From positions 241,001-305,000 of the forward strand of contig JAWQEG010000729.1 of the NCBI GenBank assembly GCA_033782935.1: DNA of 64,000 nt, given 5' to 3'. The notes under the pieces are model-generated. The model was not told the DNA's origin and ran no database searches. It saw only the letters and a list, made by a program, of their open reading frames with translations. A program made the position numbers and the translations under genes. Every line of letters starts with the position of its first letter. Position 1 is the first letter of the stretch. This stretch comes from Petrolisthes cinctipes (lineage: Eukaryota > Arthropoda > Malacostraca > Decapoda > Porcellanidae). Positions 5,834-50,234 of this stretch are shown piece by piece.

Positions 5834-5992
5834 AAGGCACCCCCCCCTCCTACCCTCCTCAAATCCCTCCTTACTTCTCCCTCTCACCAGTGAATGGTTC
5901 GAGCGAGCAGAGCTCACAACTAGTGTTTCGGGGTTATCTCGGCCAACATTGACAACGCTGGGTGGGCCTCACGGAAGTGTGACCAGCTGTAC
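5834..5992 (-). mobile_element. XY element terminal arm (ends in CAGCTGTAC)
   Basis: This is the reverse complement of the XY terminus at 28574-28713 and 47221-47370, sharing CACTAGTTGTGAGCTC, the GAACCATTCACTGG block and the outer end. It ends at GTAC (5989-5992), the same four bases that border the other XY termini. Its inner edge abuts the A-rich tail of LINE-A copy 1. Confidence 0.75.
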
Positions 5993-6067
5993 AATGTTAC
6001 CAGAACCGATATCACACCACTTAAAAGGTGTCTTGCCTGGGGGTGTCTTTACTTCTATGAGTGACTG

Positions 6068-6984: not shown

Positions 6985-7208
6985 TGGTGTTGGTCATTAA
7001 GGCAGTCAAGGTTTGTTACATCAACACATCTTCCCCCAGCCTACAAGGTTGCTATCCTGCTCTTACAGCCGGGTACCTACTTACTGCTAGGTGAACAGGG
7101 ACATAGGGTGCTTGAAAAATTGTCCAACAATTCCACTGACCTGGGGATCGAGCACGGAATTTCTCGCTTGCGAGGCGAGTGTGCTAACCATTACACCATC
7201 AGCACCCC
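6985..7208 (-). mobile_element. tRNA-derived SINE-like element
   Basis: Read on the minus strand, 7208 to about 7137 resembles a tRNA head. It has an A-box-like TGGTGTAATGG, a stem-loop CTCGC/CTCGCAA/GCGAG in the anticodon-arm position and a B-box-like GCTCGATCCC. The adjoining body (CTACTTACTGCTAGGTGAAC on the plus strand) resembles SINE bodies I associate with decapod genomes; that resemblance is from memory and unverified. No poly(A) tail was identified. Confidence 0.6.
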
Positions 7209-24240: not shown

Positions 24241-26892
24241 TGGACATTTTACATTTCCTCATTTGAGGCTTGGATGCAGGGCAGTTATGACGCACTGTAC
24301 ACCACTCCAAGATTTAGAGGCGGCTATCTGGCTTGGCCACATGTATCATGAGGTGGAGGAGGAGAAAGAGATGCCTTGGTGGTATCGAAACCTTTGGCCT
24401 ATCATTTGTGCACCCGGCTTTTTGAGCCTACTGGTGTTTTTGATAGTTGTGGTCATTCTATTCTTGTAGGATGGCCACCTTACTGCTGTTTCTCTTATTC
24501 CTGGTTTGTTTCTCCCTCTAACTTTCCTTCATTTTTCCCTCTTGAAACTGTACTGTCCATCTCTCTGACTATCAAACTTCACTATATACAAAAGCGTCAT
24601 TGCGCACAGTACGTGCATAAGTACTGTACGTACATACAGTGTGTGTGTGTGTGCGAAGTAGTGAAAGTACTAGTGAAAATTGTGGAGTGTGTACGATCAA
24701 ACGTTCACGCATAATTTTGTTTATTAGGCTACATACACAACCAGTATTTGTACATACTGGTTATCAATCTACTTGTACAACCATACGTGTAGATATGTAT
24801 ATGTACCGGGTACACTTACATATAATGTTATCATGTTGGTAGAAATAAGTTCATTTTTACCTCATCTTTCAAATACAACTGACGAGAGAGGGAGAGGTTG
24901 TGTGTGGTCTCACCATCACACACCGTCCCTTTGCGGTCATTGAGCCACTCCCTCTCCAGTGTGTGTGTGTAGCGATTGGGTGTCTCTAGCATACTACTGT
25001 ACAAGACCAATAAGACTAACAGGTCTTGTCATACAAGAGTAAAAATGTGTCCCAGCCGCGCATGTCGTCAGGGCCAGGATACACCACAGAACAAGTTGCC
25101 AGACACTGATAAACAGGCTCATTTTCTAGTCAGTTCACAGTAGGTCAAAGGTGAGACAGGTCATCTCTCTATAGTGTCCACCAAGTGCCCAGTGTGAAAA
25201 TGCCATGCAACTGCATGTGCATGTCTTCCCCATCGATACAGAATCCTGATCTCTTTCCATCTCTTTCTCTTTGTGAGTGTATCTGTGTGTGTGTGTGTAG
25301 TACCAAGGTCAAGATATATATCTCTTGGCCTTGTGTAGTACAATGCTTAATTTTTAATGAAAATTCACACGGACATACTGCCATGTAGCCAAAATAAACA
25401 CAAAATAGTAACTGGTAACTACTCAAGTGAGTTGCTGATGCTTATACTTCTCCACGTTTATTTTTTTCATATTGCGGTCTTGTCAAGGTAAAGTAAAATG
25501 AAAAGCTTAGCAGTCATCTTAACTGTTCGAATTGATGTGCAATTGTAACAGGTTTTGCATACAATAGGGATGAAATTAGACTTGGTGTCCAGTAATTGGG
25601 AAGTCTCTGGCAATCACCTATCCCCATCTACCCCCACATTTCCTCTATCTATTCCCTAGAGACCACGTTTCCTCCACTCCAGGTGATGGATGTTCATAAG
25701 TACCTCCCATTTGTCTTAGACTGCAAAACAAGTGTTCTATAACATCCTGATTTAGCCTATGTGTGCGTATATATGAAATGCCATATTTTTCTTTCAGCAT
25801 TTCATATAGTTTGGGCAAAGATTTGGAACACACAATACATATTTTGTTTCACTCCACAAACTTTCATTGACATGGCTGTATCAAGCATATCATGCAAAAC
25901 TTTGTTTTGTTGCTCCAAATGAAGTCCCTAGTGAATTTATTAGCGAATGCAAATCTGGAGTTGAATAAATCAAACCAGCTGTCCACTAATCCCTCAGACA
26001 TACTCGTCGATCAGCTGACATAAGCATAATTATTAGGTTTTATGTTAGATGTAGGGTATTCTTCAGGATACATATATTAAACAGAGAAATGGGTAGCAGC
26101 AAAAGAAAGCTAGCAAATAAAGTATTTAAGTCAAAGAAATGAGATGTATGACAATACATGACACTACTGGAATGTAATAAATGGTAATATATCAAGTTTG
26201 TTTGCAAATTTTATAGTTTACCTTTAACTTGCATGTTCAACTTAGACTAATTGTGTTTAAACATGGTATGCATGAATGTTCAATGAATGGAAGGGAGATG
26301 AAAGGATGGTGAGGGCATATAGTTATCTTTAACTTAACTCCTAATCACCATTAGATCATTCTCATTATAATTTAATAACTTACACTACTCCTCTCACAAC
26401 CTTTTTCATTTTTCATAATTGCTTCCTAACCTGGGTAATTTCATCTGATGATAACTAGAACAAAACGATAAAAGCCGACAGGATATTGAACAGAGAAAGA
26501 AGAACAAACTTTGTCACGGGATCACGGTATGCCCGCCTGTAGGCGACCTCACTCCCATACCTGTCACCATGTGAGGTGATTGGGGGCAGAGGCTGGGGGG
26601 GTTGTGGGGGGGAAATGGAGAGAAAATGGGGGTGAAGTCCACCACGCCATGACGTCACTACATCTGCTCAGTACTACTGGCTGACAAGACCTGTTAGTGT
26701 TATTGGTCTTGCTACTGTATAGGAGGGCACAAGAAGAGCTTTCTGTGTTGTCCCCCGTGACTTGTGACTTCACTTATTGCTGAGGAAGCTTGGTTCCCAT
26801 AGACCCGTTTATGTCAGGTCAGCTAGTTTGAGCGATCATGTGAGGGTACATGGTATATGACTCACTACCTATGCAGGTATTACATGTAGGTA
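24241..26892. other. Unassigned, no gene recognised
   Basis: Only minor repeats: short GT tracts, and a block ACTAACAGGTCTTGTCA near 25017 that recurs inverted near 26680. Open frames here are short and without motifs. Confidence 0.4.
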
Positions 26893-28150
26893 TTATTAGG
26901 GTCGAGATATAACCGTCGATGCATAGGAGACATTTGGTGATGGAGTCACTTGCCATCCCATCACCACCTTCCTCGCATCATAATAGGAGATACCTCGCAC
27001 TACCTTCACCGAGCAGACCTCCTTCTCCAGCTTCCACTTGGGACAATCCCTCGAGGAAGTGGAGTAAGCACCCTTACAATGAAAGCAGGAGAGCTCCACT
27101 GATATGCACTTTTCCTCAGCATGGCCAGGCGTCGCACACCTGCCACACACTGGAGAAGAAGCCTTACAAGTTCTATTACCATGTCCATAGATTTAACAGT
27201 TCAAGCATCTAAGAGGGTTGGGGATAAAGGGTCTTACTTTAACAATTTCATAACCGATTTTGACAGTTTCAGTATGTGAAACTTTGCCAAAAGTCAGAAT
27301 AACTGTTGCAGTCTTCTTCCTCATACCATCCTCTAAACGAGTTATAAATCTAGCATCAATTATATCTTGTGTCCTCATTTCCTCGATTATTTCCGTCTCT
27401 TCCATCATCATTAAATCCCTACAGGTGATTACTCTCCTGCAGGAATTCGTGGCTTGAGGAATCTTGGCTTCAACTTCGTAATCATGGAATTGACGACATT
27501 TCAGCAAACTTGTTACCTGTTTAGAATTGAAAGTTTTGACAAGGATGTCTCCAGTTGCCAGTTATTTTAACAGATTCAACCTCACCAGCCCAGCCATCAA
27601 TTACCTTTTTAATAATGAAGGGATTGAGGCCGGCCAGTGGGGCCGAACCAGTAGCATGAAACATAACAAATGAAGCATTTTTAACGTCTATGTCAAGGGG
27701 TGTTCGAATCTCGGTTCGTCCGTCGTTTCATGGTGGTGGTCGGTCATGGGGAGGAGGGGTTGGGAGAGAAAGTTACCACTTTCCCCAAGGGTGGGGGGAA
27801 GTGGGAAGAGGAAAAGAAAAAAACAGCAAGGGATTTATACCAGCCCTAATTAACTAATATTTGAGATCAACCTCTCAACCCACACTAAGGTGGTACGACT
27901 GTGTCTATTCACACCCAAAGCTATCAGTGGGGGAGTCCACCATAGGTAGGAGGCAAAGTTGATCTCAGTATAAAGATATAAACACCTACTATATCTTCTA
28001 CCAGCTATGGAGGGAATGAATACTAGCTAAGCCTAGTGGTCACCAGAAGGGTGTAAAAAAAGGAAACTACTGCCAGTGCGGCAGGCCCTGGCAGCTAGAG
28101 GAGAGCTCAAACCATACGTCCTCTCTCTCCACGACCCAGTCTCAAAGGTC
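26893..28150 (-). mobile_element. LINE-B copy A (5' part of a LINE)
   Basis: Colinear with copy B at 49195-50234. The 5' UTR ends at a shared GAGACTGGGTCGTGGAGAGA block (about 28122-28144). Next is ORF1 with a knuckle region on the minus strand. The 3' side stops inside ORF1 at about 26893. Confidence 0.75.
26896..27660 (-). pseudogene. LINE-B ORF1 fragment (zinc-knuckle protein), frameshifted
   Basis: The N-terminal part reads NPFIIKKVID (about 27610) in one frame and, after a stop and frame change near 27530, continues to RTQDIIDARFITRLEDGMRK. The knuckles are CGRCATPGHAEEKC and CFHCKGAYSTSSRDCP, followed by the EKEVCSVK..ISYYDARK signature. That signature is found after the knuckles of I/Jockey-type ORF1 proteins. 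It would bind LINE RNA if intact. Confidence 0.75.
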
Positions 28151-28569
28151 TGAGCAAATGACTTTTTTTTTTTCTTTTTTCTTTTTACGTTAAAAAGCCA
28201 TCACCCCTGATGGGGGTATTAGGCTTGCAACTCCAGCATCTATAACCTTGCGACCCCAGGATGACATAAATGTAAACAAATATGCCAACCCAGTAGTTCG
28301 CTCCAGTCATAGATGCTGGCTCATGTGAACAATGAAGGACACATCAGTATGCGAGAATTGCCTCAGGAAAAGCACCTCCTCGCATACGTCATTTGTAATC
28401 CTTCATCATTATGCTAATTCAAAGGCAAAACAATACAAAAATTTACTTTTTTATCAAGCTAATCTCATATATAAAAATAAATGTATCTAAAAGATAAATC
28501 TAATATACACAAATAAATATATATATATATATATACAAAATACATTTATCGTTAGTCCTGATAATTGTT
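28151..28569. other. Spacer with T-rich and short (AT)n tracts
   Basis: T-rich at about 28164-28187 and (AT)n at about 28517-28534. Nothing else recognised. Confidence 0.4.
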
Positions 28570-28713
28570 GTACAGCTGGTCACACTCCCGTGAGGCCCTA
28601 CCAGCGTTGTCAACATTGGCCGAGATAACCCCCGAAACACTAGTTGTGAGCTCTGCTCGCTCGAACCATTCACTGGTGGGGGGGGGATTTGAGGAGGGTA
28701 GAGGGGGTGCCTG
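28570..28713 (+). mobile_element. XY element, left part, split by the Ginger1-like insertion
   Basis: Begins GTACAGCTGGTCACACTCC and matches 47217-47370 nearly base for base up to GGGGTGCCT. At that point the 13.3-kb element begins; XY resumes at 42015. The target duplication CCTG is 28710-28713. Confidence 0.85.
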
Positions 28714-28773
28714 TGTAGCAGTAGGAAATGGGATGTGACTGGAACGTATCAACTGTGCATGCGTGGGGGTTGA
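28714..28773 (+). repeat. Left terminal inverted repeat of the Ginger1-like element
   Basis: TGTAGCAGTAGGAA, then ACTGGAACGTATCAACTG, matches the complement of 41955-42014 with about eight mismatches. It starts with TG, as Gypsy LTR and Ginger termini do. Confidence 0.85.
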
Positions 28774-29183
28774 AGGTGCCAGGCGCACGAGTCACGATGG
28801 CAAGAGAGCAGCGTTGCCAATTTAGCAAACATTTACACTTCTTTGAAGAAGATAACGACAGAATAATTGTAAAAGCTTTGTTTGAGCTAGACAGCCAAGA
28901 AGAGACAGAAAATATAAAGAAATATTGTATGATATGTGGATAATGAGAGAAAACAAAGAAGAAAATTAGAATCAGGAGAAATTTCTAAACAACACAGAGA
29001 AGAAAGAGGACGACAGGGGGGCCGTTGAAAAGGTTATCTCCCAAAACCAAAAGCATTACAGTGATTGTTACACTGATACACTCGCGCACAGTTTTACACT
29101 CGAGTTCCTGTTGCTCCGATCTTTTGCACTTTTGTTGCTCGTTCTCTAACAGTGAGTGAAGTAACTACTACTACTTGATCATC

Positions 29184-30087
29184 ATGGCTTTGACGTAAGT
29201 AAGCTATTTATTTTCATATATTAAGTCTATGGTATGAGTAATCCGTTATGTGTTTTATGAGATAACTAACTTGAGCACCGCATGGTAGGCAGATACATTG
29301 AAAGATTCCAAGTTGGGAAAGTTTTAATAATATAAGATTCTATAATAATCCGGTGTGGTGGCTTGTTACTTTATACCTGTAAGTTAAAAGTCATGTTAAG
29401 CAGCAAATATTGCTTTAGTGTAATAAGTGTCTTAATGATAAATTTAGCTACGAGCGGTTAGCGCAGTAGGAAGCTTATAGAACCTCATGAATCTGCTTGC
29501 CTATAGTGATACCGTTATAATTATAAAACTTAAACTGGGAAGCTTCTACTATATTGCATAAACATGGAAAGCTGTAAAATGTGAATAGGTGATCATACTA
29601 AGCAAATTTGGAAATCATTTATCTGTTATATACTGTTTAAGATATTGTACTGTATTATTAGACAAAGAAGTTATATATATATATATTATCTTTTAAACAA
29701 ACGAGGTTGAAGGATATGGCTTGTTCTGCATTTATGAGTTTTTTATTTATGCTTTCAATGGACGCAGCGCCAGAATCAGACGCCACCCCCATCCACCAAT
29801 CACTAGGCTGCTGACATGGTGGCCCCGCCCACCCCACATACGGAAATTGGATAAATACCGCTCACTCACCCAGAATCACCACTTCTCCCTGAAGATGTCC
29901 TATGTACTGGACGAAACGTCGACCTCCCCCAACAACTCAACATTTGCCTCACTTATCCACCATCTAAGTGAAGATTTAAGAAAAATTGTTAGATCCATTG
30001 AAAGCATAAATAAAAAACTCATAAATGCAGAACAAGCCATATCCTTCAACCTTGTTTGTTTAAAAGATAATATACTCCCTGGCTATA

Positions 30088-30172
<85 letters not shown>

Positions 30173-33100
30173 GGTTTGAGATTCTTATTTTGCAACATTA
30201 CTCCTGACTATTCTCTCTCATTTTTTCAGCAACCAGTTCTGTAGAAAGTTACATATACAGTACATAGCCTCTAACCTAAATCCTTAATTTCTACCTGGGA
30301 TATTTATGATGTACCTATGGCAGCTGATAAATACTGTATATGTCTGAATGTTATGAACTATTTATTTAACAGATCAAACAACTCTGTGGAAGAATATATC
30401 CTGGCCTGCAGGAAGAGGTTTGCTGATGATGATGTGTTACATGAGAGGGTGATATTTTACCAGCAGACAAAACAACATGTTGATGGAATCACGAATGCCG
30501 AGAGGAAGCGTATTTGGAGGCGTTCATCATCATTTGAATGGAATGAAGCAGGCAAGTTATTTTATAATCTATTATACATTAGGTACCTGAGCTAATATTG
30601 CGATTATCTGCACCGGCGAACTACTGGTTAGGTTAGGTAGGATTCGGTTTCCCTTATCAATACTCAGTGGAATTATTTTAATATTACTGTATTGAGTTTC
30701 CCGCCCAATTGGACTACTTATTGTACATTTTTCCTACGATTTCCCAAGTGTGGACAAAATTAGCCTAAAACTTGGAAGTATCCCTGCATCTGGCAACAAT
30801 GCATGCAGAGTCGGGAAGCCGCTAGGAAAGCCGCACTCCTGTTTCAATGTAAAAAATATAAAAGTAAATACATACAAATAATAATCACTCGTTTTACATA
30901 TTTCCACAAAAGAAAACAGTCTACAAAATAAAAAAGGAAAAGAAACGGGCAATTTTGGTTCCCAGAAAGTGTGAAAATCGAGGACGCAGATAATCGCAAG
31001 ATTTACCGATACCTGTTTTGGGAGCAACCTATCAGCAGTTTCTTTTATGAAATTGACAAACCTCTAAGGTTAAACCCAATCAGTGTTTGTACTGTTGTTT
31101 TATTCTCTTATTTTTTATTTATTTATATATTTATTTACTTTAGGTATGGTAATGAAATATCTACTTATCACATGGACAGCCAAATTTTATATTATTTTGT
31201 AGGAGCTGCCCTCTCTGACATCTCTAGATTGTGGTGTTGAAACTAGACAGTCAAGTAATGTACTGTATAGAGAAATTACTCTCCCATCTCCTCGTTTTTT
31301 TGTCTCACCCTCGTGGGTGGTATATACAGTAGGTATGAATGGTACACAGATAATGGACTTTTTCACCCAGAGGGATAATTGAGATAAATTGAAATAAGTT
31401 TATACCTATTTTGGACCATTCTAAGACATTTTTCATCTATGGGGTTTCTCTCGGAGATGCCCCGTTTTACAAACATAATTTAGAAATTAATCTGACCTAG
31501 ACCACAGTAGACTACCGGGACCTAACCTGGGCAAACTACCGGGATATAACCTGTGTAAACTATCATAAAGTGACCGGGGCAAATTCCCGAGACCTAGTCG
31601 AATGTGGTAACACTGCGCGGCCCTAGCCAAGAACACAGTCCTTCTATAATAATACCAAAGAACATTATGAGAATCTTGTATGTGTACTTAGTGTGATATG
31701 TATTTTACGTGGAATTTCTTAACTTACATATGTTTTACTTTCATTATTATACTTTCAAACAAGACGCTTTATTTCATACAAGCTGCAGCAAGTAGAAGGA
31801 AGGTACTGAGGAATTTTAACGACCTGCCCATAATCTTCAATTTGTACCATAGCAGTCCTGTTGGAGGGCACAGTGGCTGGAATGCTACATATGAGAAGAT
31901 CTCCAAGGTGTATTATTGGAGGAACATGACACAGGACATCCAGCATTATGTATGTGGTTATACACATGTACGTGTGTGTGTTTCTTGTGTAGACCATAAC
32001 ATGACACAAATACATTGATAAGTGTATATGTATTGAGTGGGATTCTAGTAAAGTGTTCATTCAATATTGAATGCATTACTCTCTAATTCCAATGCTGTAT
32101 TGCTCTCCTGTAATTTTAACATTTTTTCCAGATTTCTACTTGCAGTCAGTGCCAGAAGTATACACCACTGAAGATTCAGGCCCCAGAAATGCGTCCCATT
32201 AAGGTCAAGGAACCCTTAGAGTTACTTGGTGTAGACCTGATTGGTGAGTAATATATTAACATTGTTTCATCTTTGTTGGTTGAGGAGCTTCTTTGCTGTA
32301 GGTCATAATTACCCAGTTATGTATTCTTAATCAAACAATTACTGAGTTTTCATGCAACTTGCAACTGCCTATGTTGACTTGTAGTTTAGCTTTACTTCCC
32401 ATGGCTTGGTTCTGTGGTGCTTGGGTGCATGCTCTGTCTTGCATATATGCATTTGTGAATGAGACAAAAATACTAGAATAGGGTGATTTTGTGTGCTTGT
32501 ATATACTGTATATTATTTTGCTCGTATTGTGCTCTTTCTTGCAAAGGGTTTGAGATAGATATACATGAAAAAATCCAAACGTCTGTGCATGTTAATTAAA
32601 AAAAAACTTTCTCCAGAATGTGCCTGCAAAATCTATGCTTTATGCTTTGCTAGTTCTTGATGCTTTGCTGGTTCTTGATAGTTTGTCTTGATGTGTATTG
32701 TACTTGCTTTTGATCATTTAATATGATCTAGGTCCACTGCCTGTTAGTGATGAAGGGTTCAGGTATGCATGCACGTTTGTGGACTTCTATACCAAGTTTG
32801 TGGATTTCTTCCCTCTAAGAGATAAGAGTGCTTTTGGGGTGTCAAAGTGCATACGGTCCTTTATTCACAGGTAAATTTTTGAAAATTAAATTTTATTATT
32901 TCCTGTTGTAGATAATTGGTATGAAATTAGAGAGACTTGGGTACTCGTAATCTGTATGTATTGCAGTATGAGAGTTAGAGGTGTGTCTATATATCTACAG
33001 TATGTGTTTAACCATTTGTATTTTTCTTTAGGTGGGGCAAACCTGGGAGGATACTGTCAGACCAGGGACGTGAGTTTTGTGCATCGGTAAGCTGTGCTGC

Positions 33101-36041
33101 TGTTGTATCTTTCACTTGTTTAGTAGTGACATTTAGAAAAAGGAAATGTGTATCATAACATTACTGAAGGAGTTTTGTTTCTATGTATTTGGGTAGGTTT
33201 ATAATTTTGCTAGCTCAATTACTAGAAGAGCCAATATAATGCTAAAAAATTGAGATGCAGCAAGCCATCTTTGTTATATCCCCCTCAAATGGAAGGTAAC
33301 TAAAATAAGACACTTGTCATTGTGGAGAATTATATTATCACTGTGTCTACTTCTTTGATTGATGAACTAACTTTTTGTTTAATATATCAGGTTAATGATG
33401 AACTTTGCAAGGCCTACGGCATCAAGAGGAGTGTCACATCAGCGTATCATCCGCAGACGAACGGATTGGCGGAAAGGACCAACAGGACACTGAAGACCAG
33501 GCTTGCTAAACTGTGCAACACCAAGATGAGTGACTGGCCAGACTACCTCGAGGAAGTTGCCTACAGCATGCGCACTCAAAAACAAAAGAGCACAGGCTTC
33601 ACACCATACCATTTGATGTTTGGTCGTCAGCATAGACCAATCGATCAGGTAACCTGCTTTCTCATTTGTATCAGTTAGAGATTCTGATAAATAAGGCTTA
33701 ACAATCTTGGCTTTGTGTTTCTGCAAGTAGCAGTATTTAATATGAGGCATAAGCCAGTAATGTGATAGTCTATTTCATATCGTCTAAGCAAAGACTAACA
33801 GGATGTGTCTTGTATTGTTAAATGTTGAGATAAACATTTAACTTATGCCTTCATTAACAAACTTTCAGAGTTTTGGGATGCGAACAACACTCTTATAATA
33901 TGTTATAAGTCTAAATCATGCCAATATACATTGATGATATACAAGAAAGAACATATATACCAACAAAATATTGCCATATTTCCAAATAAAATCCCAAAAT
34001 CCCACTGCTCAAAGCCAATGAAATAGACTTAGTGCTTTATATGTAGGCTTTGTGTTAATCGCCTTGTAATCGGTGCTTGATTTTCAGGATGATATGGAGC
34101 TTGAGGTGGAGGAAGAAGGCCTAAGCCCTGCAGATGAAAGCACTGACACCAGCTGTGTAAGTAGAGTACTGCTACATTCATTTTGAGAGTCCTTCAAGCC
34201 TTAAAAGAACAAATTATCCTTTTGCTATTTAATGAGCATATGGATATTTCTACTTCATTTTTTCTATTTCATTTTTATATTTCAGTCTCTTGAAGGTTTG
34301 GTTAGTCTGCCCACTGCTAAAGAGGTTTTATTGTTTGTGCAGCATCAAGACCAGAAGCGTCAAGAAGTACACATCAAGGTATTAAATCATTACCTGTTTT
34401 CCCATGAAACATATTGTCTGTAACATTTTTAATCAAAATGTTATATTTTCCTCGTTTTATATTTTCTCTTTGTAGCGTGAAGAGAAAGTTAATGCTGCAC
34501 AAGAAAAACAGACAGCTGATTATAACCGAAGAAAGAAGAAGGGAAGCAAGATATATGACCTTAGTGTTGGGATGCATGTTCTCCAAAGTAATCTTCGGAA
34601 CGAGTCACGGAAGGGTGGGAAGATGGAACCGAAGTGGACTGGTCCACACAAGTAAGTGTTCATCCAGGAAATGACTTCTCATTTTAGGTGATTCATAAGA
34701 TTTTGTCAGTCTGGTGTAATGGTTTGATTGGCTGTACGTTGTACCTATTGACGTGGGTTTGAGCCCTCGTCGGAACATATTTGAAAAACGTTTAATTTTT
34801 TTACCACATTCATGTTGTCTCATTTTCATTCTCAGAATCCTGGACATAGACTGTAATCAGCGAGTGGCCTTAGAGACTGTGAAGAATGGCAAAAAACTCA
34901 ACAGACGTGTTTCCTACAACCAGCTACGTCCTTATCTCCACAGTCAGCTGCATGATGCAAGGTTTGTATGCCTTGGCATAAAGTAGTGGTTTAGTAGTTA
35001 AAGTCAGGTTCTGTATAATACTACACCTGAAAACCTCACTTTTGATAATTCCTTAAACTCTCCTCCATTCATCCTCTCCACAAACTATTCCTTTTCACTC
35101 ATTATACACTTCATTCCATCGGGTTCTATCATGTTACTTGTCCCCTATACACACTGATTGCTCACCATCACACCTTGTCACCACATGGACCTCTCAGATA
35201 ACAAAATTTTGTCTTCAGGTCGGCTGCTGGATTGGAACACCAGGTTGTATCAACTGATACAGAAAATCTGGTGACAGTTCAGCAGCGTGACGTCCACTTA
35301 GCCCCTGGCCATGGAGATCCATGTGTAGCAGCGAGGGAAATCTCCATTGAAGGAAAGTGGTTGAATGATACACATATAGATCATGCACAGTGTTTGCTTG
35401 GGAACAGTTTTCCTACCATCTCTGGTTTCCAGTCGACTGTTGTATTTGAAGGTAAAGACTGTGTACATGTTAAAACTCCTAAAGCTAAATTTGTTCAGAT
35501 TTTGAATGTACACGGTAACCACTGGCTTACAGTGAGTAACGTTCAGTGTAATAGTAACACGATTAAAATTTATGACAGCTTGAAAAGCAGTCGGCTGGAA
35601 ACCTCTGATAAGTTCAATTGCCAGGTGGCTGCCTTGATGGACTGTCCAAGCACCTCAATTAGAGTAGAGTTAGCAAGTATTAAACAGCAAAGAGGATCTT
35701 CAGATTGTGGTTTGTTTGCTATTGCCTGTGCTACAAGTCTTTGTTTTGGCCTGTCACCTGAGACACAAAATTTTATTGAAGATGAGATGAGGAGCCACCT
35801 TGGAAAATGTTTTTTGGAAGGAATAATGAGCCTATTTCCTGTTAGTCAATCCAACTTAACCCCTGCAAATAACAACTTTTATGATATTCTTTTATGTTGT
35901 AAATGTAGAATGCCAAAGTTTTCAGAAAATAGTTTAATTCAATGTTTGTTCTGTAACCGGCTGTTTCATTTAAACTGTGATAAGACTCCCTGTGACCTCT
36001 TTATTTGTAGTGACTGTACACAAGAAGTAGAGTTCCTTTAA
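29184..36041 (+). CDS. Ginger1-type transposase: integrase + Ulp1 protease + PHD finger, 12 exons
   Basis: I infer exons 29184-29194, 30373-30551, 31783-31949, 32132-32243, 32732-32870, 33032-33086, 33391-33648, 34088-34156, 34286-34378, 34476-34651, 34836-34961 and 35219-36041. All introns are GT-AG except intron 2, which has a GC donor (CAG/GCAAGT). Phases agree and the joined frame is 735 codons without a stop. Visible domains: HHCC finger (H86, H93, C123, C126) and integrase core D154, D213, E249 with exactly 35 residues between the last two (SDQG, HPQTNGLAE). An acidic linker (308-330) and a GPY/F-like WTGPH (415-419) follow. The Ulp1/C48 protease has H563 (GNHW), D581 (YDS), Q619 and C625 (SSDCGLFA). 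A C4HC3 PHD-type finger ends it (C688, C691, C704, C707, H712, C715, C725, C728). Role: nuclear cut-and-paste transposase; the protease role is unknown. The 11-nt first exon is the weakest call. Confidence 0.85.
29671..30086 (+). mobile_element. Penelope-like 3' fragment with inverted ends, in intron 1
   Basis: About 85-bp inverted arms (TATTATCTTTTAAACAAAC at the left, complement at the right, including GGATATGGCTTGTTCTGC) flank a 240-bp centre with a hammerhead-like motif. Both sides run into (AT)n, at about 29665 and 30091-30168. Penelope-like elements typically carry such motifs in terminal repeats and show inverted partial copies. No reverse transcriptase is present here. Confidence 0.6.
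29889..29920 (+). ncRNA. Hammerhead-ribozyme-like motif
   Basis: CTGAAGA (29889-29895), a stem GTCC/GGAC closing an 8-nt loop, then GAAAC and GTC (29918-29920). These match the conserved CUGANGA and GAAA core boxes and a GUC cleavage triplet. I cannot find a convincing stem I around it, so activity is doubtful for a single unit; Penelope-like minimal hammerheads are reported to work as dimers. Confidence 0.45.
30091..30168. repeat. (AT)n microsatellite in intron 1
   Basis: Uninterrupted AT run adjoining the Penelope-like fragment. Confidence 0.95.
34703..34773 (+). mobile_element. Possible tRNA-like SINE head in intron 10
   Basis: A-box-like TGGTGTAATGG and B-box-like GGGTTTGAGCCC lie about 40 bp apart, in the spacing of a tRNA promoter. 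No body or tail was recognised; this may be chance. Confidence 0.35.
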
Positions 36042-36061
36042 ATGCACAGTACTGTACAGTA

Positions 36062-37524
36062 TACTCCGTTTATTTTTACTTGTCCAGCCGCTCGACCGAG
36101 TCCATGGTGAGCCTAGCCCGAGATATGAATGGAGTTCTGGGATTGGCTGCCGTGACACTCGCTTTACCTGTCCTTCTCTGTAAGCATTGACTCTACACTT
36201 GCAACACAACACCACACATCTCTATTAATTTCCGTATAACTTGACTATTATATTTTTTATGTATATTTTTTTTATAGAATTACCCTCTGCATTAAATTTT
36301 GAACTTAAACATGTTTTCCAGAATAAAATACAGCCCAAAGAAAAATTCTTATTGCGAGTTTAACCCAAAATGCGGCTTGAAAATATTTATACCACTTATT
36401 GCATTGAAATGTATTTTGCTGCATCAATAAGATTCATATGAACATATAACATTCATTCTTATCCACAATTTTCTCGTGAAAATGACAATGGCGTCAGATT
36501 TGAGATAAATATAAATATAAAAGAAATACAAGACGTTTAATGCGAAGGTGTCATTCCCGATTTCAACAAGGTTTATATAAAATTATTATATTTCTTTTAT
36601 TTGTGACTATAAGTTTCCTACAAACAGAATATGTTATACATTATTGGATACAGACAGTTTGGTTTGTCATGCATGTCATATGGAAGGAAAATATTGCATA
36701 TATGTAATTAGAGAAAAAAAAAATTGGACAAGTGGCAACTTGTGCACTTGTAACTGCCTGTGGGAGCGAAGGACAGTACATATTGTACGAACCTTCGTAG
36801 TTCGTACTTGACTCAGTGACAAGCTGGCTGTGGCGTGGAGTAGGCTTATTGCTCCGTTTGCAGTCTCTCTCTTTATTCTCTAATTACATATAGATAATAC
36901 TTTCCTTCGTATGTCATGCATGGTAAGCCTCACTTTATCTAAAAACATGTAACATAATATGTTTGTAGGAATCCTATAGTGGCAAATAAAAGAAATAATG
37001 TTGTTTTATATATAAATCTTTTTTGAGATCGGGAATAACATCTTCCCATTAAATGTATCGTATCTCTCTTATATCTATATTTATCTAAAACCTGATGTCA
37101 CTGTCATATTCACCAAAAAAATTTGTATGAGAATGAATGTTATATTTATACATAAATCTTATGGATGCAAAAAAAAAAATGTAAAAAGTTCTATAAACAT
37201 TTGCAAGTAGTGTTATGACTTTTAAACTCGCGATAATATTTTTTATTTGGACTGTATTATGTTTTGGAAAATGTGTTTAAGTTCCAAATTTAATGCTGAG
37301 TTTAATGGTGTAAGACAAATATTTATAACCTAAATAATAGCCGAGCTTCACATAAAATATTAGAGGTATGTCGTCTTGCAAATGCAAGTTAGTTCCTGGA
37401 TGTTTGGAGAGGTGGCAAGGAAGGCCATTGTGACGGCAGTCAATCACAGAGCTCCATTCATATCTCGGGCTAGGCTCACCATGGACCCGGTCGAGCGGCT
37501 GGACAAGTAAAAATAAATGGAGTA
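36062..37524. mobile_element. 1.46-kb foldback element with TA duplication
   Basis: Outer arms pair almost perfectly over about 95 bp: ACTTGTCCAGCCGCTCGACC and its complement, ending TACTCC/GGAGTA. They are flanked by TA at 36060-36061 and 37525-37526. The inner sequence is also inverted: ATTCCCGAT..CTTTTATTTG near 36555 pairs with CAAATAAAAG..ATCGGGAAT near 37000, and ACATTCATTCT near 36448 pairs with AGAATGAATGT near 37130. The whole element is thus one imperfect palindrome with arms of about 700 bp. The TA target suggests the Tc1/mariner group. It lies 20 bp after the transposase stop codon, in what should be its 3' UTR. Confidence 0.85.
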
Positions 37525-40437
37525 TAGTTTTCTATCAGCCCTTTCATCTGAGGCCAGTTTGGAAGAATACTGCTAACATTATATTTACATCTTTAAGGGC
37601 AGCTGAGAGAGACGCGAGCTGGGAATCTTCTCATCTGTGTTCTCATATGATGAGACAAGACACCAAGTGAAAGATGGAAGAGTGATAAACTCTCGTAGGT
37701 TGCCTTGTTTTGGTAAAATCTTATATCACTAAGTATTGTCAGGTTTCTGAAAAGTACTTGAAAAAAAGCACTGTATTGCCAATCCTTTGACATTATTTGT
37801 AAACAAAAAATGCATTTGATTTCTAAACATCAATAGTTTTAGGGCAAAAATAATAAATTAGGGGTTCTTAAACTGAAGTTCATGAGGATTAGATATTAAT
37901 TAGTTAACATATGTATCCACTATACAACCAATAGGCTGTATAAGTGATGAAGACCTCAGTGCCTCTAAAACGTTTAAGAACCAGTGCTATAAATGTTGAA
38001 GTACCTCGGTGATGAATTTTAAGACCAATTCATTTTGTTTGTTACAGATCCACTGCTATGGACCACCACGTCGCCGTCGTGCAGTGGCCAAAGTACCCTG
38101 ACAGAGTGAGTTGTGGTGGTGGTGGAAGGCAGTGGATAGTTAGGATGTATACACATCATCTGTACCACCACCTTACACCACCACACAAAATGGTAGGGGG
38201 AAAACAAAGCGTGGTCCAAAACAGATGGCTAAACTAGGAGATTGGTCCTACTCCTAGCTGCACACCTCCTTTAGAAGAGTCTCCAATTACCTCTTATAGT
38301 CCCCCCAGCGGTGGCAGAGCTCATAAAGCTGTGTGTGCTTACTGTCTTAGCATAGCGGTTCAAATCCGTCTGGAGACACATACTGGTGTGGTTATATCCA
38401 GATTCTGTGGTGTGTAGGATTTGTTAAATATGTATAGGCCTATTACTGTACTTAATACAAAATACATAATTAATTTGTTTGAAACATAATTAAGAATTTA
38501 GCTTACCATCTAGCGCATTGACAACATTGTGCTTCAGTTTGGCCATATAATTGATTTTTAATAATGTTAAACTTAGGTAAATTTGCCTTGCTTCTGCATT
38601 GTCACACTTGACTTTGACGGATATTTGTTGTTAATCTAACAAATATATCAACCATCGAGATGGAATGCCATATTTAATATTTGATAAAAATGTTTACAGT
38701 AATACTAGTAATTATAATGTTGATTTATTTTGTCCATATTTTCTAAAATAATTTTATTTATTTCACCCACAATTATATACTGTACCAGCTGTTATAAAAA
38801 TATGTCTTTTGAGTTATGTACAATATTAATGGTTTATTATAGGAAATAAAGTTCTTTATACTGTACTTGATGTTTTGAAAGACCCTACCTTATTGTATTT
38901 ATACTGTAGGTGATATTTTGTCACTAATATAGTTTTATAATAATGCTATCTCTGTCTGAACTCTACAAATTCCCTACATTCTCTGTCACACTACTTAAGA
39001 GTTTTCTGTTTGAAACTAATTTATTGCCCAGCATTTAACTTCATACAGCTCAGATATATCCCCTATCACCCATAGATTTCATACATTACTAGAGTGACAT
39101 AAGACCCATTAGGGCTTGCTGATGCTAATCTTGATACTGTATACAAGAAAGAGTATAGTATTATGTAATGTCATCATGAGCCAAGTTTGCCCAATAATTC
39201 AGCTAGCTACTTAGTGTATTCATTTACTTGTGGCAAAAGAACATTGGCCTAAATAGTCAAGGTTGATCAATTTAAAAATATTACAGTACTGGTTATTTGT
39301 ACATAATTATAGTACAGGCACAATCATCTCATCCTTAAGAATTGAAATATTGTCAATCTCTACTTCTAGTCAAAGTTTAGGGAAAATTAAAATATGCCTC
39401 ATTATAGGGTTATACTGGAAAGAACCTCTTGTTTCTTCACTTCTTCAATGAGTCATGCTTCTTCAACAGAGGTGAAATGAGATTCCCTATACAGTTGGTG
39501 TAAGGGTGAGGTGACCCCACTTCACACTTGCATTTTTCACTGGATGGAAGAAAATTATGATGCAGGGAAGAATATTATGATTGCATAACAAGTCATACTG
39601 AGGCTATATTTCTGCACAAACAGCATACACACTATGATGAAAGTGTTCTAGCTGTGGAGATGTGCTTAACTATAATAGTATCTTATTTAAGGACTTAGAT
39701 TTCGATTTGGAAGGTAAAGACAGTGATAGAAGAGAAAGCTCTTCACTTCATAGGTGGCTATATACTAAAAAAAAATTGCAGGAACATATCCATATTTAGG
39801 AAATAAGGCCATCAATTGTGCCACTGTTTGCTTAATTAATTAAGTAAATCATGGACTGAAAGGATTAATAGAGGTAAGCTATGCACTATCTCCCTTCAGA
39901 TAAATTTGTTATCGGTTAAGATGAGATAAATGTTTAAAGCAGTTCATGGTGAAAGCCTTGAAGGCTCACTTAATTGCTTCTCTAATAGAACGTGTGGGAA
40001 TTGATTTACCCAAAGATGTAGTGTTCTGATGTATAATATCTGTGTACTTGAGAATGAAATTAAACATCTAAACAAAATCATTGACAAAGAGAAGAAGGAA
40101 GAAAAATAGTCATATAATTTTGTAAATTATACCGTAATTTAATATACTGTATGCACTGTATATACAACAAAGTTTGTATTGATATATTCTATTAGAATAT
40201 GAGAGGGTTAAGATATGTAAGCTTGTCTAGAATATCGGTAACATATATTAAGTCATATACAGCGATGATGTGATGGAGGGAGACATATATATTTATTGAG
40301 CTTGGTATGTTACAAGTACGAATGATAATTGAATGTTTATTGTAGTGAAACGTGAATTATGCGAGGGAAAATAATGATTTAGCTTGTCACTGCACATTCT
40401 CGCGATCAAGGTATTTGGTACGCAGAGCGGTATAGGG
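37525..40437. other. Non-coding interior of the Ginger1-like element
   Basis: AT-rich with no long ORF. A possible small exon at 38048-38105 (acceptor GTTACAG, donor GTGAGT) is noted as a finding. A tRNA B-box-like GGTTCAAATCC lies near 38360 without a convincing A-box. Confidence 0.4.
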
Positions 40438-41659
<1,222 letters not shown>

Positions 41660-41954
41660 GTATAGGGTGTGGTGGTACGGAGCAGCGCTCATCATGCCCT
41701 CCTCGTACAGCGACTACTTATTTATGACATTTATTCCTTACTCGGGATATTCCATGCGCTGTTTTTTGTGCCAATCGCTTGCAAATCATATCGAGTTTGC
41801 TATTTCATACATAAATATTGACATAGTAAACGAAATGCGAAATTGGAAAATAAATTACTGCCGGAGCATTTTCCCATAATAAAATACATAGGGAGAGATG
41901 TCTTATCATAACAAAGGTCATGTGTTTTGTGTACTGTGGCGCGGAATGACATGT

Positions 41955-42014
41955 TGGGCCCACACTCATGCGCAGTTGATACGTTCCAGTGGCATTCCAC
42001 TTCCTACTGCTACA
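41955..42014 (-). repeat. Right terminal inverted repeat of the Ginger1-like element
   Basis: Reverse-complement partner of 28714-28773, ending CTACTGCTACA, followed by the CCTG duplication at 42015-42018. Confidence 0.85.
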
Positions 42015-42490
42015 CCTGCATATACAAGATAGGTGAGAAATTATTCTTTGGGAGGTGAAAAATGTGTGGAAGCCCAGTTATCAATTATTTATATACCGAC
42101 ATTCGTGTCAATTATTAGCATCATTAAATGTAAGATTAAGTTTTTAATATTATGATGTAAAACAAAAACAACTGAGGTAATATTATTGTATACGGTACTT
42201 TTTCGTATAATATTCAATGGTTATTATCAAGCACTAAACGCTGAAAAATACTTACACAATAACTGAATAAGAATCATGAACCAGAATGCTCTTTATTAAA
42301 TGAAGCAAATGTAAATACCTCCATATTGCATGTGTCAAGTGTTGATACCACTAACACACACTTCCATTTCCCCCGTATCTACCTAACAGTTTATAATCAA
42401 GGCTCTCATCCCTCACGTGATAGCAGCCTTGTAATATTCTGAATACTTTTAATAATAGCTCGTTGTATTGAATATAGTGAACACGTGGTG
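42015..42490 (+). mobile_element. XY element, right part
   Basis: Matches 47368-47826 colinearly (GGTGAGAAATTATTC, CAATTATTTATATACC, GCACTAAACGCTGAAAAATA) and completes the copy begun at 28570. Homology between the copies stops at AACACGTG(G/C)TG in both. Confidence 0.85.
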
Positions 42491-46294: not shown

Positions 46295-47216
46295 CTAAGA
46301 GTATTTAGCCTTCTTATTCTTTGGAGGAGTACCTCCACCACCGGGCCTCGATCGGCGGTTGTCGATGGACACCTCCATGTTCCCTTCGGAGGAGCGAGAT
46401 CTGTTCGCTCCTCTCACGGGGGTAGGCTGGGCCATCACGTGAGAGTTGGGTTGCTTCGTGAGGCGAGTCATATTGAATTCATTCTTACGGTTCTTCTTGC
46501 CATTCTGTTTCGGAGAAGTAGTAATAACATCAGAGTACAGCAGTGAAGATACATCAGGGGTTGAAGAGATAGATTGAGGGTTGCAGGAAACATGTTCATT
46601 AGAAAAAGATGAAGCAGAGGGGGTTGGGTCAGAAATCTTAGAGAAAATCTCAGAAAGTGGTGGTAGTCCAGGAACAGGTTCAGTCTGCATACAGATTGTC
46701 TTTATCACGGGTCGGGCCTTCGCAACCGAAGCATAGGAAGTGTTAGGGGTCGGTGTTGTACGTGACGCCATAACGGTCTTCCTTGCCTCGAGATACGAGA
46801 CACTAGAAGTAGCCTTCACCGCACAGACCTCCTTCTCCACCTCCCACACGGGACATGCCCGAGAGGAAGGATTGGTACCAATGCAATTCACGCACTTCTC
46901 AACCTCAGAAGTACAATCTTTATCAGCATGATCCTGACTCGAACACTTCCCACAGACTGAGACAACAGAGCGGCGAAAATTCATTACCTGTCCAAATTTC
47001 TGGCACTTAAAACATCTCAAGGGGTTCAGAATAAACGGTCTTACGTTACAAATTTCATATCCAACTCGAATAGATTCAGGTAGTGAAGCTTTACCAAAAG
47101 TCAAAGTAACCGAAGCAGTCCTAACTCCCTCGCCATACTCCAAACGTAAATGCGACGTGCAGCAATGACATCCTGATCTCTCATTTCATGGACGATGTCT
47201 GTCTCCTCCATGTACT
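46295..47216 (-). pseudogene. LINE-B ORF1, C-terminal part (zinc knuckles)
   Basis: An open frame of 282 codons follows a frameshift near 47143; upstream codons (MEETDIVHEM, about 47205) continue to the XY junction. Knuckles: CFKC..., CGKCSSQDHADKDC and CVNC...ACP, then VEKEVCAVKA and SYLEARKTV, the I/Jockey ORF1 signature. The stop is at 46295, about 30 bp before the first ATG-like start of ORF2. Confidence 0.8.
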
Positions 47217-47826
47217 GTACAGCTGGTCACACTCCTGTGAGGCCCACCCAGCGTTGTCAACGTTGGCCGAGATAACCCCGAAACACTAGTTGTGAGCTCT
47301 GCTCGCTCGAACCATTCACTGGTGGGAGGGAGAAATAAGGAGGGATTTGAGGAGGGTAGGGGGGGTGCCTATACAAGAAAGGTGAGAAATTATTCTTGGG
47401 GAGGTGAAAAGTTAATTAAAGCTTTAATAAAAGTACGAAAATACACCCGGTTATCAATTATTTATATACCTATATTCGTGTCAATTATTAACATCATTAA
47501 AGGTAAGATTAACTTTTTCATATTATGATGTAACACAAAAACAACTGAGGTAACATTATTGTATACTATTTTCGTATAATATTTCATGGTTATTATCAAG
47601 CACTAAACGCTGAAAAATACTTACACAATAACTGAATAAGAATCATGAACCAGAATGCTCTTTATTAAATGAAGGAAATGTGAATACCTTCATTTCCCCC
47701 GTATCTACCTAACAGTTTATAATCGTGTCAAATATCAAGGCTCTCATTATCTCTCACGTGATAGCAACCTTGTAATAATAGCGTTTAATAATAGCTCGTT
47801 GTATTGAATATAGTGAACACGTGCTG
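47217..47826 (+). mobile_element. XY element without Ginger insertion (near-empty site paralogue)
   Basis: GTACAGCTGGTC to GGGGTGCCT (47370) continues directly into ATACAAGAAAGGTGAG. The Ginger-bearing copy has the 13.3-kb insert plus CCTG at this junction. A 4-bp difference (GCAT absent here) shows it is a related copy, not the literal pre-insertion allele. Confidence 0.85.
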
Positions 47827-48239
47827 TTTGGTAATTTACTTTAAATCCCTCAGTATTTCATCTGTTTCTAGGTAGCAATTTTTTTTATTTTGGCAGATAA
47901 TACATGTGAGCAGAGGCCATGGAGACAGCGTCTGGCACCCACAGGCTTGTCAACTGTATTTTTTTTTTTTTTTTTTGCACTAATTAGAGACTGAAGTTGA
48001 CTCTAGTCTCGTTAGCCCACATTAGTTTTGATACTCGAAGAGGATTATGAGTTGGTTGAAAACCACTAAACTGGTAAGGGTATTGAAGACTGAGTGTAGA
48101 AATATTCCCTCTCCAACATGTTGGCAGTCCTAATGACCTGAAGATGTGTAAGGTGGTGCAGTCAGTCAGTTCACAAGACAAAGTGTATATGAAAAGTCAC
48201 ACTGATCGCTCTGGGGTCAGGATAACCTGAGACGCGGCC
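47827..48239. other. Unassigned, with a T run at about 47960-47977
   Basis: No gene recognised. Confidence 0.4.
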
Positions 48240-48698
48240 ACCTCGTAGTGTCTTGAGAGGTTGTGAATGTAGATTTCCTCAATGGGTAACGTTTACTTCC
48301 CTTGTTTTCCGGCGTGCGAACAATCACTTTCCCCGTAGGGGGAAGTGAGTCATGATGGAACCCCCTCCCGCCCCTCTCCCCATAGGGGGTAGGGGTCCTG
48401 ACCCGGCTCAACCGTCGATAAGGCCTGAAAATGCTAAGTTTGTGACGTTTCGCGCATCTGGGACAACTCCTATAACAAGTGTCAACCCCTTCATTATTAA
48501 GAAAGTGATTGACTATTGTTGTGGTGAGGTGGACAAGGTCAAGAAATAGTCGAATGGATCCCTCCTTGTTAAGACGATTAATGCTGGCCAAATCAATGAT
48601 CTTTTGAAGATGACCAAGTTTCACTGTTACGATGTTGTTTGTTCGATTCCTGAGTCCATGAACTCGTGCAGGGGAGTTGTCTCCTGTAGGGAGTTCTT
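48240..48698 (+). pseudogene. LINE-B ORF1 N-terminal part on the plus strand (fragment D)
   Basis: Reads KFVTFRASGTTPITSVNPFI, then IKKVIDYCCGEVDKVKK, stop, NGSLLVKTINAGQINDLLKM, to NSCRGVVSCREFL. It corresponds to the part of ORF1 missing upstream of the copy C break. It ends at a GTAC (48699-48702) beside an XY terminus. Confidence 0.7.
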
Positions 48699-48779
48699 GT
48701 ACAGCTGGTCACACTCCCGTGAGGCCCACCCAGCGTTGTCAATGTTGGCCGAGATAACCCCGAAACACTAGTTGTGAGC
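48699..48779 (+). mobile_element. XY terminus fragment
   Basis: GTACAGCTGGTCACACTCC to CACTAGTTGTGAGCTC, then abrupt change to LINE-B copy B sequence. Confidence 0.8.
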
Positions 48780-50234
48780 TCATGGCGGCCTGAGCGCTTA
48801 GTCTTCTTGTGCCGCCCGCTGCCTGGCGAGTGGCTACCGGGGGACCTTTCCCGGTTATTGCGTCCGGAGACATCCATTGCTTCCTCATCAATGGTGAGTC
48901 TCCCAGACTCCACCAAGGAAGAACTATCCCTTCTCTCCCCCGATGAAGTGGGAGTAGAGTGTGTGCAAGAAAGTGACTTGTTTGGTTTAAGGGTGGTGTA
49001 TTTTACTTTGTCATACATGTCTGACTTCTTCTTTTGCTTCTCTGACGGCAAAGAAGCTGCAGCCTGAGAATAGGAGTTGGTAGATGGGGTAATAGTCTTA
49101 GAGGGGGTAATAATAGTAGGTGTAGAAATAGAGTGATCAGCCTGTTCGTTTGGCTCTGACTCAGTCTGAGTACTAATAGTACACATCACGGGTCGAGATA
49201 TCACCGCCGATGCATACGAGACATTGAGTGATGGAGTCGCTTGCGATCCCATCACCACCTTCCTCGCATCATAATAGGAGATACCCGCACTGCCTTCACC
49301 GAGCAGACCTCCTTCTCCAGTTTCCACTTGGGACAATCCCTCGAGGAAGTGGAGTGAGCACCCTTACAATGAAAGCAGGAGAGTTCCACTGATGTGTACT
49401 TTTCCTCAGGATGGCCAGGTGTCGCACACCTGCCACACGCTTGAGAAGAAGCCTTACAAGTTCTATTACCATGTCCATGAATCTGACAGTTCAAGCATCT
49501 AAGAGGGTTGGGGATAAGGGGTTTTACTTTAACAATTTCATAACCGATTTTGACAGTTTCAGGAGGTGAAACTTTGCCAAAAGTAAAAATAACTGTTGCA
49601 GTATTCTTCCTCATACCATCCTCTAAACGAGTTATAAATCTAGCATCAATTATATCTTGTGTCCTCATTTCCTCAAATTATTTCCGTCTCTTCCATCATC
49701 ATTAAATCCCTACAGGTGATTACTCCCCTGCAGGAATTCAATGTCAAGGGGTGTTCGAGTCTCGTATCGTCCGTCATTCCGTGGTTCGTTAGTTCGTGGT
49801 GGTGGTCGGTCATGGCCACCTCCTCCGCTGTACGGAGGAGGGGTTGGGAGGGAAGGAGGCATAGTGACCACTTCCCCCAAGGGTGGGGGGAAGTGGGAAG
49901 AGGAAAAGAAAACACCAGCAAGGGATTTTTACAAGCCATAATTAACTAATTTTTGAGATCAACCTCTCAACACACACAAAGGTGTTCAAAGACTGTGTTC
50001 AATTACACCCAGAGCTATCAGCGGGGAAGTCCACCATAGGTAGGAGGCAAAGTTGATCTCTGTATTAAGATATAGACACCAACTATATCTTCTACCAGCT
50101 ATGGAGGAAATGAATACTAGCTAAGCTTTGTCGTCACCAGAAGGGGAAAAAAATACTGCTGGTCCGGCAGGTCCTGGCAGCTAGATGAGAGCTCAAATCA
50201 TACGTCCTCTCTCTCCACGACCCAGTCTCAAAGT
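48780..50234 (-). mobile_element. LINE-B copy B, 5' part
   Basis: Colinear with copy A from the 5' boundary (about 50234, TTGAGACTGGGTCGTGGAGA) through ORF1. A deletion within ORF1 joins CTTGACATTG directly to AATTCCTGCAGG; copy A has about 250 bp there. It ends at 48780 against an XY fragment, so no ORF2 is attached. Confidence 0.8.
48785..49940 (-). pseudogene. LINE-B ORF1 (copy B), N-terminally deleted and frameshifted
   Basis: MACKNPLLVF (49939) is probably not the native start because it reads through UTR-like sequence. From NSCRGVITCRDL the protein continues to RTQDIIDARFITRLEDGMRK. The knuckles CGRCATPGHPEEKY (final Cys replaced by Tyr) and CFHCKGAHSTSSRDCP follow, then EKEVCSVKA. A frame change near 49255 precedes the Ser/Thr-rich, basic C-terminus ending GRHKKTKRSGRH. 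Confidence 0.75.

What the first reader, a model, noticed from the sequence alone, without database searches (positions are those of the whole stretch)
29184..36041. Intact 12-exon integrase-Ulp1-PHD transposase
All twelve exon joins keep frame over 735 codons, with a full HHCC finger, D,D(35)E triad, GPY/F-like motif, full Ulp1 catalytic set (His, Asp, Gln, Cys) and a C4HC3 finger. Retained coding capacity in a locus loaded with later insertions suggests either recent activity or selection. The C-terminal PHD-type finger is an addition I do not clearly recall from published Ginger1 proteins.
Basis: partly seen in the sequence, partly recalled or inferred. Interest (0 to 1): 0.88.

Follow-up and report, generated by a model that had tools for sequence, protein, structure and literature searches.

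The report
Young crab Ginger1 transposon, slightly broken
This stretch of a porcelain crab genome is one of about forty closely similar copies of a Ginger1 "cut-and-paste" DNA transposon whose 12-exon gene is predicted to encode an integrase-like transposase with a SUMO-protease domain and a zinc finger at its end; the family likely moved recently, but this copy has lost one of its splice sites, so it is a well-preserved member of a known kind rather than a new machine.

Summary
The 12-exon gene is real. But "intact" is not right. The conserved exon-3 acceptor is broken in this copy; 23 of 24 other copies checked keep it.

The gene sits inside a complete element, 28714-42014, with ~56-bp inverted repeats starting TGTAG, a 4-bp duplication (CCTG) and a paralogous empty site at 47216-47829. 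Seven of 10 distinct insertion sites read have CCGG, so this is Ginger1. The host is Petrolisthes cinctipes.

The closest copies (99.9% in the last exon) share this copy's flank, so they are alleles or duplications, not new jumps. Copies at different sites are still up to 99.8% identical, which shows recent movement. Singleton changes within the family look neutral (dN/dS 1.12); between families every domain is constrained (0.17 overall). That is selection on the moving lineage, not on this locus.

The PHD finger is not new: Ginger1-9_HM has Ulp1 plus PHD (Bao et al. 2010). What stands out is 11 introns and ~12 kb, against at most 4 introns and ~7 kb in the published table.

The parts
28714..42014 (+). 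whole Ginger1 element, 13,301 bp in this copy (about 11.9 kb in the C1820 copy, which lacks the nested hAT-like insertion and differs by other indels)
28710..28713 (.). left target-site duplication CCTG (CCGG at most other sites)
42015..42018 (.). right target-site duplication CCTG
28714..28769 (+). 5' terminal inverted repeat, TGTAGCAG...
   Evidence: 48 of the first 55 positions match the 3' repeat
41959..42014 (-). 3' terminal inverted repeat
29184..29194 (+). exon 1 (start codon, three codons and a split fourth)
   Evidence: identical 11-nt exon and GT donor in sister copy L046
30373..30551 (+). exon 2; GC donor, conserved in both families
32132..32243 (+). exon 4 (end of H2C2 finger, first catalytic Asp)
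32732..32870 (+). exon 5 (integrase core)
33032..33086 (+). exon 6 (second catalytic Asp)
33391..33648 (+). exon 7 (catalytic Glu)
34088..34156 (+). exon 8 (acidic linker)
34286..34378 (+). exon 9
34476..34651 (+). exon 10 (GPY/F-type domain; GPH in this copy)
34836..34961 (+). exon 11
35219..36041 (+). exon 12: Ulp1/C48 protease domain, C-terminal PHD finger, stop
29687..30090 (.). hairpin-bearing insertion in intron 1, absent from copy L043
36060..37526 (.). imperfect inverted repeat (arms about 76-90%), also present in copies L040, L042 and L044, so part of the family
38017..38098 (+). block 85% identical to sister family, with splice-acceptor-like edge; possible 3' UTR exon
40438..41659 (.). 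nested hAT-like insertion, TIR CAATGTCACTTATA, 8-bp duplication GTATAGGG; absent from C1820 copy
47216..47829 (+). paralogous copy of the repeat into which the element inserted: the empty site

Best explanation
This is one copy of a multi-copy Ginger1 DNA transposon (28714-42014) in the porcelain crab Petrolisthes cinctipes, whose 12-exon gene is predicted to make an integrase-like DDE transposase that would cut the element out at its TGT...ACA ends and paste it mostly into CCGG sites. Shown: the ends, the 4-bp duplication, a paralogous empty site, about forty related places in the genome, ten distinct insertion sites, the exon structure conserved in a sister family, and constraint on all protein domains between the two families. 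Inferred: splicing of the full message, excision and integration chemistry (as in Gypsy/retroviral integrases), removal of SUMO or a similar modifier by the Ulp1 domain, and chromatin or histone-tail binding by the PHD finger. This particular copy likely no longer makes the full protein, because its exon-3 acceptor is broken; the cryptic acceptor would give a protein ten residues short, with unknown activity. Its ends remain and could still be moved by transposase made elsewhere. The same insertion, with the same flank, is on three other contigs, so it has also been multiplied as part of a larger stretch or is partly seen as alleles.
Against: The window copy's duplication is CCTG, and two other same-family sites read CTGG and GTGG on the one side seen, so the published CCGG/CCGT/ACGG rule holds at 7 of 10 sites. 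For ten of the same-family copies tried the 5' end was not reached. The three close relatives of this copy whose ends were read (C854, C1948, C959) share its flank, so part of the copy number is not transposition. Element length (~12-13 kb) and 11 introns lie outside the published range. PHD is below Pfam's cut-off in this protein. No transcript was examined. One of 11 RT-bearing rows (P0052) falls inside the Ginger1-like set of the tree, and the labels 'Ulp1' and 'OTU' are not single groups there.
Confidence: 0.92

Rival explanations
1. The locus is a domesticated host gene, like Imagin in malacostracans or GIN1/GIN2 in vertebrates, kept by selection.
For: Many introns, as in the vertebrate GIN genes (6-8 introns, PMC2836005 section 8); long open frame; constraint between families.
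Against: Own terminal repeats, target duplication and empty site; copies at ten distinct sites in two families; catalytic triad kept, whereas Imagin has lost it and is single-copy in an MMUT intron (abstract and passages of PMC12863088); singleton changes within the family are neutral.
Confidence: 0.02
2. This copy is fully functional and autonomous: the cryptic exon-3 acceptor is used and the ten missing residues do not matter.
For: The cryptic acceptor keeps frame and all catalytic residues remain.
Against: The lost residues lie in a stretch before the zinc finger that both families and the Homarus protein P0009 have; GPY/F tyrosine replaced. One of 20 further copies lacks the same acceptor, so its loss is not unique.
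Confidence: 0.15
3. The gene is the integrase end of a Gypsy-type LTR retrotransposon that acquired introns and extra domains.
For: Integrase core is closest among solved structures to retroviral and Ty3 integrases.
Against: Inverted, not direct, terminal repeats; 4-bp, mostly CCGG sites; no long frame besides the gene listed from 27000 to 42014 (those frames were not searched against families); ten of 11 RT-bearing rows fall outside the Ginger1-like set.
Confidence: 0.01
4. The element belongs to an endogenous large DNA virus that took up a Ginger transposase, as sesarmid-crab nimaviruses did.
For: Such viruses exist in crabs and carry Ginger2-like, intron-bearing transposases (passages of PMC10871703).
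Against: Those insert into AT repeats with a different 46-bp end; here mostly CCGG sites, ~12 kb between the ends and no other long frame listed.
Confidence: 0.01

Closest known systems
Ginger1-9_HM (Hydra), Bao et al. 2010, PMC2836005
   Same: Integrase-like transposase with Ulp1 and PHD at the C-terminus; TIRs (120 bp there); Ginger1 group with 4-bp CCGG-type duplications
   Different: 3.8 kb and 2 introns there; about 12 kb and 11 introns here
Ginger1-5_HM (Hydra), same paper
   Same: Ulp1 domain, several introns, and a GC-AG intron as its first intron; here the second intron (the one after exon 2) is GC-AG in both crab families
   Different: 4 introns, 7.1 kb; intron positions could not be compared because figures are not held
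Imagin, domesticated Ginger1 gene of malacostracans (PMC12863088)
   Same: Same host group; H2C2 finger, YPYY motif, integrase core, introns
   Different: Single copy in an MMUT intron, lost DDE residues, no inverted repeats; the crab element is multi-copy with DDE and repeats
Vertebrate GIN1/GIN2 host genes
   Same: Derived from Ginger1, 6-8 introns
   Different: Host genes, not mobile
Homarus americanus proteins P0004 and P0009 (public predictions)
   Same: 48% and 41% identical over the aligned parts (50% and 29% of the query); Ulp1 above and PHD below Pfam's cut-off in P0004
   Different: Partial or tandem gene models; element ends not examined

Membership tests
Ginger1 DNA transposons | Terminal inverted repeats of about 40-270 bp, 5' end TGTNR | tested here: met
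   About 56-bp repeats starting TGTAG
Ginger1 DNA transposons | 4-bp target duplication, CCGG or CCGT/ACGG | tested here: met
   CCGG at 7 of 10 distinct sites read (3 same-family, 4 sister), at both ends in C1820; CTGG at C578, GTGG at C2599 (one side only) and CCTG at the window's site
Ginger1 DNA transposons | H2C2 finger, DDE core | tested here: met
Ginger1 DNA transposons | GPY/F motif | tested here: met
   GPY in 20 of 24 other copies and in sister copy L046; GPH in the window and 4 of 24
Ginger1 DNA transposons | YPYY motif upstream of the finger | tested here: inconclusive
   The corresponding region aligns with Homarus, coral and other proteins, but the motif's exact residues come from a figure that is not held; part of the region is lost here if the cryptic acceptor is used
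Ginger1 DNA transposons | C-terminal OTU or Ulp1, sometimes PHD | tested here: met
   Ulp1 by Pfam and fold; PHD by full-length but sub-threshold Pfam match and conserved ligands
Ginger1 DNA transposons | Phylogenetic place apart from Gypsy integrases | tested here: met
   Inside a 30-row set with support 99/99; 1 of 11 RT-bearing rows also inside. 46 sequences given (43 picked from 100 hits), 5 dropped as too short in the core
Ginger1 DNA transposons | Published size 2.6-7 kb and 0-4 introns (a range, not a definition) | tested here: not met
   About 11.9-13.3 kb, 11 introns
Imagin domesticated gene | Loss of the DDE triad | tested here: not met
   D152, D211, E247 present
Imagin domesticated gene | Single copy, no inverted repeats | tested here: not met
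[quoted passage not shown]
   no search for MMUT was made
Gypsy LTR retrotransposon | Reverse transcriptase and LTRs | tested here: not met
   Inverted repeats at the ends; frames downstream of the gene at most 109 codons, others from 27000 to 38000 at most 160 codons besides exon 12; no family search was run on those frames

The most novel reading that the evidence does not exclude
Two young crab Ginger1 families keep the same 11 introns, including a GC-AG intron and an 11-nt first exon, at a synonymous distance of about 0.9 while still jumping. Splicing would then be a selected part of the mobile gene (for example a germline switch, as in the P element). In the sister family the Ulp1 domain has lost its catalytic Asp in 5 of 5 copies yet is still constrained against the window family, so the domain would serve as a SUMO-type reader rather than a protease.
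Probability: 0.2. Interest if true: 0.6.

Novelty: new member of a known kind. Interest (0 to 1): 0.36.

Why it matters
It adds a well-bounded, recently active Ginger1 family from a decapod, with more introns and a larger size than any in the 2010 table, in the group where a domesticated Ginger1 gene (Imagin) was described in 2026. It gives mobile relatives with the triad in place to compare with Imagin, and a natural set of ~40 copies to test why an integrase-type transposase carries a Ulp1 protease and a PHD finger.

Tried and rejected
Host-gene reading: rejected on ends, distinct sites and neutral singleton changes. 'Later insertion' reading of the 36060-37526 inverted repeat: rejected, because other copies carry it. 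Second gene in the 3' part: no frame over 109 codons, only conserved short blocks. An RNA family in the intron-1 insertion (a hammerhead-like core seemed visible by eye, from recall): Rfam at gathering thresholds gave nothing there. Literature checks on Ginger with Ulp1, PHD, introns, crustaceans and decapods. No listed title or abstract start shows a 12-exon Ginger1 element in a crab, but Repbase and most subscription papers were not searched. Count of all element ends in the genome: not obtained, the search did not complete.
Full report
Where it is. The window lies in a 1.48-Gb genome of 9,385 contigs. Two contigs of that genome (C1820, 787,993 bases; C438, 811,959 bases) have exactly the lengths of the contigs that carry Petrolisthes cinctipes proteins P0002 and P0038. 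Size and contig number fit the published assembly of that porcelain crab, 1.49 Gb and 9,391 contigs (passages of PMC10849366). I take the host to be P. cinctipes.

Test of the gene model. A sister family, 72% identical in the last-exon protein, was compared exon by exon through copy L046. All twelve exons are there in order. Nine lengths are identical; exon 3 is 3 nt shorter, exon 12 15 nt shorter, and exon 8 is longer by 6 nt if its nearest acceptor is taken (another lies further upstream). The spliced reading of L046 is open for 739 codons. This rules out chance joining.

The flaw. In the window copy the acceptor there is broken; it is kept in 8 of 8 copies of both families and in 19 of 20 further copies of the same family. 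These 20 are half of the 40 places listed. The frame stays open, but the protein lacks part of a conserved stretch before the zinc finger. Also, the GPY/F tyrosine is histidine here and in 4 of 24 other copies.

The element. A search for inverted pairs around the gene found one pair with TGT...ACA ends and a 4-bp duplication: 28714-42014, CCTG. The two flanks align through the joint to a second copy of the same genomic repeat at 47216-47829, with a 4-base difference at the joint and other indels. That is the empty site in a paralogous repeat. Other sites: copies C1820, C684 and C1645 have CCGG before TGTAGCAG, C578 has CTGG and C2599 GTGG; C1820 has CCGG at both ends; four of five sister copies were read and have CCGG in unrelated flanks. 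So 7 of 10 distinct sites are CCGG. For ten further same-family copies the end was not reached. These are the published Ginger1 hallmarks (PMC2836005: abstract, passages and two sections read).

Shared site. The copies C854, C1948 and C959 have the window's own CCTG junction and at least 1.85 kb of the same upstream flank at 97.9-99.4%. So the window's insertion happened once and is now seen on four contigs. Alleles alone cannot give four; a duplicated larger unit or assembly duplicates are possible. C854, C1948 and C959 keep the exon-3 acceptor, so the window's lesion is likely younger than that multiplication.

Nested changes. The 29687-30090 stretch in intron 1 is absent from L043, and 40438-41659, with hAT-like ends (label recalled) and an 8-bp duplication GTATAGGG, is absent from C1820, so both are later additions. 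The 36060-37526 inverted repeat is in L040, L042 and L044 at 96-98%, so it travels with the family.

Age and selection. Exon 12 was compared in 26 other copies: identity to the window 96.1-99.88%; 3 copies have stops, one is gapped, one partial, and 5 of the 25 that reach it lack the exon-12 acceptor. The closest (C854, 1 of 823 bases) shares the window's site. Between copies at different sites identity is 96.4-99.76% in the last exon, and 99.4-99.8% over 6.1 kb among four sister copies at different sites: recent movement. In 25 sequences (window included; the gapped and the partial copy dropped) singleton changes were 13.3 synonymous and 58.7 non-synonymous, ratio 1.12, and shared changes 8 and 16, ratio 0.51; same-site copies were not removed from this count. 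Against sister copy L046, dN/dS is 0.17 over 737 codons: rve 0.03, Ulp1 0.21, PHD 0.26, acidic linker 0.48. This pattern is expected of a moving lineage under selection whose individual copies drift. It does not support host selection on this locus. In the sister family the Ulp1 Asp is Asn in 5 of 5 copies, which argues that protease activity is not needed there, or is altered.

Comparison. Introns number 0 to 4 in the published table, and the first intron of Ginger1-5_HM is GC-AG; here there are 11, with GC-AG at intron 2. Imagin is a domesticated relative in the same animals (PMC12863088: abstract, section 7 and passages), but it has lost the triad and the repeats. A third, intronless Ulp1-type family (31-32% identical, L050/L051 read) shares this genome.

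Limits. No transcript was seen. The genome-wide count of element ends did not complete by the tool. Letters from the genome were limited, so only some copies were read in full, and copy numbers are lower bounds. The mechanism (cut, paste, deSUMOylation, chromatin reading) is inferred from domains.

Noticed in passing
window 26792-28713 with L092, L093, L094: The window's insertion and at least 1.85 kb of its upstream flank recur on contigs C854, C1948 and C959 at 97.9-99.4%: a duplicated larger unit, assembly duplicates or alleles.
   Followed up: partly
window 40438-41659: Nested insertion with CAATGTCACTTATA inverted ends and 8-bp duplication GTATAGGG, hAT-like (label recalled).
   Followed up: partly
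window 36060-37526: 1.5-kb imperfect inverted repeat just after the stop codon, carried by other copies of the family; role unknown.
   Followed up: partly
window 37590-37650 and 38017-38098: Short blocks that resemble the sister family's sequence (the second 85% identical), with splice-acceptor-like edges; possible 3' UTR exons or an alternative end of the protein.
   Followed up: partly
L045-L049: Sister family: Ulp1 catalytic Asp replaced by Asn in 5 of 5 copies although the domain is constrained (dN/dS 0.21, L046 against the window).
   Followed up: partly
L016, L028, L029, L030, L032: Five copies lack the exon-12 acceptor AG, perhaps one subfamily or one multiplied insertion.
   Followed up: no
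L050, L051: Third family, 32% identical, integrase plus Ulp1 in one intronless frame of 595-624 codons.
   Followed up: partly
window 29880-29930: Inside the intron-1 insertion, a stretch that by eye recalls a hammerhead core of Penelope-like elements; Rfam at gathering thresholds found nothing.
   Followed up: partly
window 5843-5994, 28568-28712, 47216-47370, 48694-48781: Copies of one genomic repeat; the Ginger1 element sits inside the second.
   Followed up: partly
window 7132-7205, minus strand: Borderline tRNA-Ala (CGC) match.
   Followed up: no
window 26896-27561, minus strand: Open frames with CCHC-type zinc knuckles, retroelement gag/ORF1-like by eye.
   Followed up: no
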